Shown here: positions 22,080 to 23,303 of the stretch, piece by piece | Layout: each line of letters opens with the position of its first letter | Position numbering within the stretch: the stretch's first letter is position 1 | Virus record (IMG/VR): IMGVR_UViG_3300046529_000501 | Coordinates: 1-24,717 of that record | DNA: 24,717 nucleotides | Direction: 5' to 3' (one strand) | Origin: a virus | The notes under the pieces: model-generated | The model's input: only the letters and a program-made list of their open reading frames with translations | Databases searched by the model: none | Told to the model about the DNA's origin: nothing | Program-made: the position numbers and the translations under genes

Positions 22080-22110
22080 TTGACCATTAGGACGAAACGT
22101 CCTACATAAG
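22080..22110 (+). promoter_or_regulatory. Candidate rightward promoter with palindromic operator
   Basis: TTGACC at 22080-22085 could be a -35 box and CATAAG at 22105-22110 a -10 (spacing 19; TACATA at 22103 is an alternative with spacing 17). Between them sits TAGGACGAAACGTCCTA (22088-22104), a perfect 7-3-7 palindrome in an ideal place for repressor binding. Start of transcription and repressor are inferred. Confidence 0.5.
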
Positions 22111-22155
22111 ATCCACCGGACGGTAATGGTGCCGGACGGGACTGGAGGACCAGAG

Positions 22156-22227
22156 ATGAAGTTCCACTTCGTCTTGGAAATCCAGGTCGGGAAGTGGAAG
22201 GTCAGCGTTCACCTGACCTTCCGCTAA
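22156..22227 (+). CDS. 23-codon ORF (putative leader or microprotein)
   Basis: Starts ATG 22156 with GGAGG eight bases upstream, a very good initiation site, and stops at TAA 22225-22227. The product begins MKFHFVLEIQVGKWKVSVHL and alternates polar and hydrophobic residues on both sides of a Gly-Lys turn, as expected for a two-strand beta-hairpin. A perfect 10-bp hairpin lies in its last codons and more RNA structure follows before the HTH gene. It may be a regulatory leader peptide or a functional microprotein. No known homologue recognised. Confidence 0.62.
   Translation: MKFHFVLEIQVGKWKVSVHLTFR
22196..22222 (+). promoter_or_regulatory. Perfect 10-bp hairpin in the leader
   Basis: GGAAGGTCAG (22196-22205), loop CGTTCAC, CTGACCTTCC (22213-22222). 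It overlaps the final codons of the 23-codon ORF, so ribosome transit would open it. No T run follows, so it is not a classical terminator. Confidence 0.65.
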
Positions 22228-22236
22228 GTACCCGGA

Positions 22237-22295
22237 CCTGGGGGGCGGCTCGCGAAAGCGGGTCGCCTGCCCAGGGTAACACTCTGGTGAGGGCA
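22237..22295 (+). promoter_or_regulatory. Structured 5' leader with alternative hairpins before the HTH gene
   Basis: Fold A: CCTGGG (22237-22242) pairs with CCCAGG (22270-22275), and inside it a 10-bp helix 22244-22253/22258-22267 (two G-U pairs) is closed by a GAAA tetraloop. Fold B: CCAGGGT (22271-22277) pairs with ACTCTGG (22281-22287), and TGCCC (22268-22272) can pair with GGGCA (22291-22295), covering the likely ribosome site GTGAGG. The two folds share bases and exclude each other, which would suit a switch. Function is inferred from base pairing only. Confidence 0.55.
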
Positions 22296-22300
22296 CGCAA

Positions 22301-22594
22301 ATGACAGAATGGAAAGATGATCCGGCGCGGACGGGACCGATTGGCGGGACACCCGAAAGCGCCGAATGGTTCAAGACGATGCTTGTCGAGCTTGGCGAGA
22401 CACAGGCCAGCATGGCGCGGCTGATGAAGCGCAAGGGCGATGACCGCCAACCGGCCACCATCGAACGGCACATCCGGCGTATGGCCAACGGCGAGGCGCG
22501 CGTGTCAGGCGAGATGCGCGTGATCCTGACGATGATGAAGCGCGCGAAAAGCCGGGCGGAAAAGCGCATCGCCGCGGAGAAGGCCGTGGCGTGA
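22301..22594 (+). CDS. Helix-turn-helix transcriptional regulator
   Basis: A 97-residue protein starting MTEWKDDPARTGPIGGTPES, with GTGAGG about eight bases upstream. Residues about 27-65 (MLVELGETQASMARLMKRKG, then DDRQPATIERHIRRMANGEA) follow an XRE-like helix-turn-helix layout (LGxTQxxxARxM...ATIxRxIxRMxxGEARVSGEMR). The C-terminus is a basic helix. It is the last gene of the short rightward unit and ends 10 bases from the convergent ParB-like gene. A natural candidate for the phage switch, though its operator is not known. Confidence 0.75.
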   Translation: MTEWKDDPARTGPIGGTPESAEWFKTMLVELGETQASMARLMKRKGDDRQPATIERHIRRMANGEARVSGEMRVILTMMKRAKSRAEKRIAAEKAVA

Positions 22595-22604: not shown

Positions 22605-23303
22605 CTACTTCCGCGCCGCGATAAGCCGGAAGGTCTTGGATATCGTCTGGAACTCATGCCCACACCCCGGGCAGCGCACCTTGCCCTGCAGGGTGCCCTC
22701 GGCCGATCCGTCCGCCTCGTCTTCGACGTCGGGATCGCTCGCGAACAGCTTCTCGACCTCCAGCGGATCGAACCCGGTCAGATCGAGGTCGAAGTCCATT
22801 TCCTTCAGCGAGCCCATCTCGATCCGCAGGAGGTCATCGTCCCAGGAAGCCTCATCGGAAAGACGATTGTCCGCGATGACGTATGCCCGGCGCTGCGCCG
22901 CCGTCAGGTGCTTCAGCTCGATCGTCGGCACCGTCTCCAGGCCGAGCTGCTGCGCGGCCAGCAGCCGGCCGTGCCCGGCGATCACGCCCGCCTCGCCATC
23001 CGTGAGGATCGGGTTGGTGAAACCGAACTCCCGGATCGAGCGGACGATCTTGGCCACCTGGTCGTCGCTGTGCGTCCGGGGGTTGTTCTCGTAGGGCACC
23101 AGCTCGTCGGTTTTGACCATCCGGTAGCGCGGAAACCGGGCGGCCAGGGCCTCGCCGTCCGCTACCTCACGCGCGTGAGGAGTCAATTTGGGTGGCGGCC
23201 GGGGGCGGCCGGCGCCCGCGCGCGGCGCGCCTGCGGCCTCCGGTTCTCGTTCCGAAGAATTATCGACCGGTTTCTTCTTCGCCGTCATCTCCGACACTTT
23301 CAT
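22605..23303 (-). CDS. ParB-like nuclease/partition-fold protein with C-terminal zinc knuckle
   Basis: A 232-residue protein. Residues about 60-150 are a ParB/Srx-like domain: VPYENNPRTHSDDQVAKIVR, then FGFTNPILTDGEAGVIAGHG and RLLAAQQLGLETVP, with the GHGR box at 110-113. Then AAQRRAYVIADNRLSDEASW, a segment typical of the phage ParB-like proteins that accompany or are fused to DNA methyltransferases. The last 25 residues carry VRCPGCGHEFQ (C211-x2-C214), half of a zinc ribbon. The N-terminus (to about 40) is basic and disordered. No methyltransferase is seen in this window. A palindrome covers its start; ATG 23303 has no Shine-Dalgarno, so the mRNA may be leaderless. Confidence 0.83.
   Translation of the reverse strand: MKVSEMTAKKKPVDNSSEREPEAAGAPRAGAGRPRPPPKLTPHAREVADGEALAARFPRYRMVKTDELVPYENNPRTHSDDQVAKIVRSIREFGFTNPILTDGEAGVIAGHGRLLAAQQLGLETVPTIELKHLTAAQRRAYVIADNRLSDEASWDDDLLRIEMGSLKEMDFDLDLTGFDPLEVEKLFASDPDVEDEADGSAEGTLQGKVRCPGCGHEFQTISKTFRLIAARK

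What the first reader, a model, noticed from the sequence alone, without database searches (positions are those of the whole stretch)
22156..22300. Tiny ORF plus mutually exclusive RNA hairpins ahead of an HTH regulator: possible new cis-regulatory leader
A 23-codon ORF with a strong ribosome site ends inside a perfect 10-bp hairpin (22196-22222). Downstream a long hairpin of 6 plus 10 bp closed by GAAA (22237-22275) competes with a second fold (22268-22295) that can cover the HTH gene's ribosome site. This is the layout of a translation-sensing attenuator or switch. The two G-U pairs in the GAAA helix are compatible with selection on RNA. I could not match it to a known leader family.
Basis: partly seen in the sequence, partly recalled or inferred. 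Interest (0 to 1): 0.72.

Follow-up and report, generated by a model that had tools for sequence, protein, structure and literature searches.

The report
Hairpin-wrapped tiny gene with phage repressor
A phage of acetic-acid-type soil bacteria carries a 23-amino-acid gene whose messenger RNA is folded into several evolutionarily conserved hairpins and which shares a self-repressing operon with a small DNA-binding protein; this RNA-and-peptide unit is in no RNA or protein family library searched here.

Summary
The tiny ORF (22156-22227) and both main hairpins are real and conserved. Eighteen leaders from phages and Acetobacteraceae genomes keep a 10-bp hairpin in the last codons of the ORF (P2) and a long, mostly GNRA-capped hairpin after its stop (P3). 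In the final alignment 16 of 20 pairs show changes on both sides (0/500 shuffles). P2 also exceeds synonymous recoding of the peptide, and a third hairpin (P1) covers the start codon. No Rfam, Pfam, PHROG or NCBIfam family matches. The proposed switch is not supported: the alternative fold is about 2-5% populated, has no counterpart noted in relatives, and a ribosome at the stop codon does not change access to the HTH gene. A palindromic operator fills the space between the -35 and -10 boxes, and its sequence changes with the HTH protein's recognition helix. Relatives put a different protein between the same operator and HTH, or nothing. Three chromosomal copies of the peptide-hairpin unit have no HTH gene. 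The best reading is a moron-like, self-repressed small-protein operon built like acr-aca operons. Its cargo is a cationic, probably beta-hairpin peptide whose hairpins most likely control its own translation and mRNA stability. What the peptide does is unknown.

The parts
22080..22108 (+). Predicted promoter: -35 TTGACC (22080-22085), 17-nt spacer, weak -10 TACATA (22103-22108)
   Evidence: Read from sequence; the strict consensus scan did not report it, so weak on its own; the same position is used in relatives
22088..22104 (.). Operator-like palindrome TAGGACG-AAA-CGTCCTA filling the promoter spacer
   Evidence: P 0.014 against shuffles; palindromes at about -71 to -48 from the first start codon in L003, L013, L018, L164, L167, L169, L171 and at -63 to -43 in L019; sequence covaries with the HTH recognition helix
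22116..22146 (+). 5' UTR hairpin P0 (weak here)
   Evidence: z -1.6 here; -0.4 to -4.7 in relatives
22142..22149 (+). Ribosome-binding site of the tiny ORF (GGAGGACC)
22154..22174 (+). Start-codon hairpin P1 (AGAUGAAGU/ACUUCGUCU, 9 bp)
   Evidence: over 16 members Fisher p 6e-8 against recoded ORF plus shuffled UTR; 0.005 with the UTR held fixed in 10 members
22156..22227 (+). Tiny ORF, 23 aa, cationic peptide with beta-hairpin-like alternation (cargo)
   Evidence: Conserved pattern and ribosome site in 16 members; pN below pS among L014, L101, L102, L103
22196..22222 (+). Hairpin P2, 10 bp, 7-nt loop, inside the last codons
   Evidence: Covariation; exceeds synonymous recoding
22237..22275 (+). 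Hairpin P3, 11+6 bp with 1-nt bulge, GAAA tetraloop
   Evidence: Covariation; fold z -4.9
22301..22594 (+). 97-aa protein predicted to fold as an all-helical HTH domain; proposed autorepressor
   Evidence: AlphaFold2 pLDDT 85; weak Foldseek matches to YdiL, HigA2, Aca7, Aca2, Aca1; no Pfam, PHROG or NCBIfam hit for the window protein

Best explanation
The region is a small, self-contained, self-repressed operon of the moron type. A promoter whose spacer is a palindromic operator drives a 23-aa cationic, probably beta-hairpin peptide and then a small HTH protein that binds the operator and represses the operon. This is the plan of acr-aca operons. The peptide's message carries three conserved hairpins: P1 over the start codon, P2 in the last codons, P3 just after the stop. 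They travel with the peptide gene rather than with the HTH gene, so they most likely act on the peptide message itself: P1 limits initiation, and P2 and P3 stabilise or insulate the 3' end of the peptide cistron from the HTH cistron. Shown by computation: the hairpins, their covariation, conservation of the peptide, operator position, operator-HTH covariation and exchange of cargo. Inferred: repression by the HTH, the translational role of P1, the 3'-end role of P2 and P3. Unknown: what the peptide does.
For: Covariation of P2 and P3 in 7, 12 and 18 sequences. P2 beyond synonymous recoding. Start-codon hairpin. Peptide conserved with its ribosome site; pN below pS among L014, L101, L102, L103. 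Operator about 70 to 45 nt before the first start codon in HTH-linked members. Recognition-helix Leu pairs with ACG-type and non-Leu with AGG-type operators, 7/7 and 6/6, p 6e-4, not corrected for kinship. Same operator and HTH with a different 81-aa cargo in L169 and with no cargo in L168 and L170. Peptide-hairpin units without an HTH gene in L101-L103; those three genomes had no HTH match. Access to the downstream gene unchanged by a ribosome at the ORF stop. In known acr-aca operons an inverted repeat lies in the core promoter and the Aca protein represses from it (PMC9410906; PMC8434428).
Against: The HTH protein matches no known repressor family and its structural matches are weak (best E 0.35). 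The -10 box is weak. P1 significance is modest when the UTR is held fixed (p 0.005). pN/pS is uninformative over distant pairs (about 1 in the first 13 codons). L013 keeps P2 poorly. In L122 only P2 and P3 survive, so these hairpins may have a role independent of the peptide. No expression data.
Confidence: 0.55

Rival explanations
1. The HTH protein represses at two levels: it binds the promoter palindrome and also the start-codon hairpin or P2 in the RNA, as reported for Aca2.
For: acr-aca-like anatomy; weak Foldseek match to Aca2 and YdiL; an RNA- and DNA-binding HTH protein is reported for phage anti-CRISPR control (title only seen, Birkholz 2024).
Against: The hairpins are well kept in L101-L103, whose genomes had no HTH match; the P2 sequence does not follow the operator class.
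Confidence: 0.17
2. Translation-sensing attenuator or switch: the ribosome on the tiny ORF decides whether the HTH gene is expressed.
For: Tiny ORF with a conserved ribosome site ending inside a hairpin ahead of a regulator gene.
Against: No terminator; alternative fold about 2-5% and no counterpart noted in relatives; downstream access unchanged with a ribosome at the stop; unit also occurs without the HTH gene.
Confidence: 0.08
3. Type I toxin-like unit: a cationic peptide whose structured, poorly initiating mRNA is held in check, in some elements with a linked repressor.
For: Tiny cationic peptide, start codon paired in a hairpin, strong 3' structure, sporadic presence in chromosomes.
Against: No transmembrane helix; alternating beta pattern; no antisense RNA shown; no toxicity data.
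Confidence: 0.12
4. P2 and P3 are a small mobile palindromic element (REP-like) that happens to overlap the ORF end.
For: In L122 only these 81 nt remain, 95% identical to the window while the flanks are about 80% identical.
Against: One copy per genome where checked, always at the 3' end of the same peptide gene in the other members apart from L002, which lacks the ORF start; peptide and hairpin are conserved together.
Confidence: 0.08

Closest known systems
acr-aca operons (Aca1, Aca2 and others; PMC9410906, PMC8434428)
   Same: Mobile-element operon of a small protein followed by a small HTH protein; inverted repeat inside the core promoter; HTH family found with different cargo genes.
   Different: Cargo is only 21-27 aa and not a known anti-CRISPR; HTH protein matches no family searched; the message carries conserved hairpins inside and after the cargo ORF.
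Aca2 control of acrIF8-aca2 by DNA and RNA binding (Birkholz 2024, title seen only)
   Same: HTH protein, operator in promoter, stem-loops at the first cistron (from own knowledge).
   Different: RNA binding not tested here; hairpins persist in three genomes with no HTH match.
Phage morons (from own knowledge; compare pid of P22, PMC3573128)
   Same: Independent small transcription unit on the opposite strand between phage genes; position differs among phages.
   Different: Usually lack covarying hairpins in the message.
Leader-peptide attenuators
   Same: Tiny ORF and hairpins ahead of a gene.
   Different: No terminator, no supported alternative fold, no fixed downstream gene.
HK022 put RNA (from own knowledge)
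   Same: Two hairpins early in a phage transcript.
   Different: Here the operon ends after the HTH gene in the window and the hairpins overlap a translated ORF.

Membership tests
acr-aca operon | Inverted repeat within the core promoter of the operon | tested here: met
   window -35 and -10 read by eye, not reported by the consensus scan
acr-aca operon | Downstream gene encodes an HTH protein | tested here: met
   fold; HTH matches, all weak
acr-aca operon | HTH protein belongs to a described Aca family | tested here: inconclusive
   No Pfam or NCBIfam hit; Foldseek to Aca1, Aca2, Aca7 with E above 1; Aca HMMs not at hand
acr-aca operon | Cargo inhibits a CRISPR-Cas system | not testable with these tools
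   No function known for the peptide
Leader-peptide attenuator | Intrinsic terminator or sequestered ribosome site in competition with an antiterminator fold | tested here: not met
Leader-peptide attenuator | Translated tiny ORF upstream | tested here: met
   coding signature only, translation itself not shown
Known Rfam family | Match above gathering score | tested here: not met
Type I toxin | Hydrophobic membrane-spanning peptide | tested here: not met
   Peptides alternate charged and hydrophobic residues, net +3 to +8
Type I toxin | Antisense RNA | not tested
   No transcript data

The most novel reading that the evidence does not exclude
A new kind of genetic unit: a tiny protein gene whose own coding sequence is shaped into covarying RNA hairpins at start and end, moving between phages, islands and chromosomes, and bound in RNA by its product or by a linked DNA- and RNA-binding HTH repressor.
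Probability: 0.25. Interest if true: 0.82.

Novelty: new variant of a known kind. Interest (0 to 1): 0.62.

Why it matters
It gives a structured mRNA element with strong covariation, a linked family of 21-27-aa peptides and an HTH family, none of them in the libraries searched. The way operators change with the recognition helix makes the regulation directly testable. As HTH-linked cargo in phages, the peptide and its neighbours (the 46-58-aa and coiled-coil membrane proteins) are good candidates for phage accessory functions such as anti-defence or exclusion. It is also an unusually clear case of RNA structure and peptide sequence constraining the same codons.

Tried and rejected
DNA similarity search of the leader in phages: nothing; of a related leader in phages and plasmids: only chance-level matches. 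R1 and R2 hits below about 45 bits that I inspected (L106-L110, L129, L159-L161) were terminators or coding hairpins and were dropped; L111-L118 were not inspected and not used. R2 over 367 genomes of the class gave no true member, and a narrow DNA pattern over 397 genomes of the order gave none. N-type or put-type antitermination considered and set aside because the window operon ends at the HTH gene. Start-codon hairpin alignment across all members failed in MAFFT because registers differ, so P1 rests on per-sequence tests, not on a covariation count. Search for empty chromosomal sites of L101 and L102 in related genomes: flanks are rearranged, so no clean empty site. No paper on this unit found. 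AlphaFold was not run on the 23-aa peptide (below the size limit).

Full report
What the window is. It is a phage record. The portal, large terminase, major capsid, ParB-like and integrase genes lie on the minus strand. The finding and the 97-aa gene behind it (22301-22594) are a short plus-strand unit that faces the ParB-like gene 22605-23303. Relatives of the 97-aa protein were found in Acetobacteraceae genomes and in phage contigs.

Observation. The alternative fold 22268-22295 exists only on paper: -9.1 against -33.1 kcal/mol, and about 2-5% of the ensemble.

Relatives. Homologues of the HTH protein gave the first leaders. A covariance model from seven of them, R1, found four more in Acetobacteraceae genomes: L101, L102, L103 and L105. 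DNA patterns and a second HTH search gave L122 and L125 and L164, L165, L167, L171, L172 and L173. Apart from L002, L125 and L122, where the start is missing, each has a ribosome site, a 21-27-aa peptide of the type MKIxIxIRxWKWKxxFxLxR, P2 in its last codons and P3 after the stop.

Covariation. With 7, 12 and 18 sequences the pairs with changes on both sides number 10, 14 and 16 of 20, and none of 500 shuffles reaches the observed values; sliding the partners by one to three columns destroys the signal. The later alignments were fitted to the model, so they lean towards it; the first (A2) was not. Because P2 lies in codons, I recoded each ORF synonymously with the window's codon use. The peptide alone predicts 3 to 8 of 10 pairs, so part of the palindrome follows from the peptide, but the observed pairing is still in excess (Fisher p 1.5e-9 for ten members; 8e-15 for sixteen members on folding energy). 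The members are related, so these p-values are optimistic. P3 lies outside the ORF, has fold z-scores of -2.7 to -7.9, and mostly ends in a GNRA loop (GAAA, GCAA or GCGA).

Start-codon hairpin. Fifteen of sixteen predicted folds pair the start codon or loop it out in a 4-9-bp hairpin that uses UTR bases, with different sequences (for example CACGAT/ATCGTG, CGATGCA/TGCATCG, CAATGCG/CGCATTG); L173 is the weak case. Against recoded ORF plus shuffled UTR the combined p is 6e-8; with the UTR fixed it is 0.005 for ten members. In the window the start codon is predicted fully paired.

Peptide. Hydrophobic residues sit at odd positions up to residue 9 and at even positions from residue 14, as expected for two strands and a turn (inference); net charge is +3 to +8. 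Among L014, L101, L102 and L103 pN is well below pS. NCBIfam and Pfam give no match.

HTH protein and operator. AlphaFold2 gives an all-helical HTH-type fold (pLDDT 85). Foldseek matches are weak but mostly of HTH type near the top: YdiL, HigA2, Aca7, Aca2, Aca1. In the HTH-linked members a palindrome lies about 70 to 45 nt before the first start codon; in the window it fills the spacer between TTGACC and TACATA, a -10 that the strict scan did not accept. The residue before the conserved Arg of the recognition helix is Leu in 7 of 7 members with ACG-type half-sites and something else in 6 of 6 with AGG-type half-sites (p 6e-4, uncorrected for kinship; table compiled by hand).

Cargo exchange. 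L169 has the same operator and HTH but an unrelated 81-aa coiled-coil membrane protein in place of the peptide; L168 and L170 have operator and HTH only; L019, L165, L172 and L173 have an extra 46-58-aa protein between peptide and HTH. Conversely L101, L102 and L103 carry peptide and hairpins in chromosomal intergenic regions without an HTH gene, and those genomes gave no HTH match. Operator goes with HTH; hairpins go with peptide. This argues for a self-repressed operon with interchangeable cargo, the plan described for acr-aca operons (PMC9410906; PMC8434428), and against a leader made for the HTH gene.

Switch test. Folding the transcripts with and without a ribosome parked at the peptide stop leaves downstream ribosome-site access unchanged within 0.07 in seven leaders, and no terminator-like site was found.

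Decay cases. L002 and L125 have lost the promoter and ORF start next to a virion-gene-cluster gene. L122 keeps exactly P2 and P3 (81 nt, 95% identical to the window, flanks about 80%) between the same neighbours. This could be recent recombination plus deletion, or a role of the two hairpins on their own; it is the least explained point.

Verdict. I file it as a new variant of a known kind (self-repressed phage accessory operon) with a new structured-mRNA and peptide cargo.

Noticed in passing
L122:12521-12600 (minus strand): Window-like phage in which only hairpins P2 and P3 remain of the operon, 95% identical while the flanks are about 80% identical.
   Followed up: partly
L169:1501-1998; L025: Same HTH family preceded by a small coiled-coil plus membrane-helix protein (weak match to phrog_6330, unknown function), a candidate alternative cargo.
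   Followed up: partly
L019, L105, L165, L172, L173: An extra 46-58-aa ORF (MAYAD/MAYAGT...DPEDRRPWWRR) follows the hairpins; no family match for the two versions scanned.
   Followed up: partly
window 22116-22146 and L013, L018, L164, L167, L169: 5' UTR hairpin with a loop like AATGG(G/T), also present in front of the different cargo in L169, so it seems to belong to the HTH-promoter unit.
   Followed up: no
L018 (upstream of the peptide ORF): Two copies of the operator palindrome AGGTCA-nnn-TGACCT about 20 nt apart, like IR1 and IR2 of some aca promoters.
   Followed up: no
L099:1818-1889: tRNA gene near the L019 copy, suggesting an island at a tRNA site.
   Followed up: no
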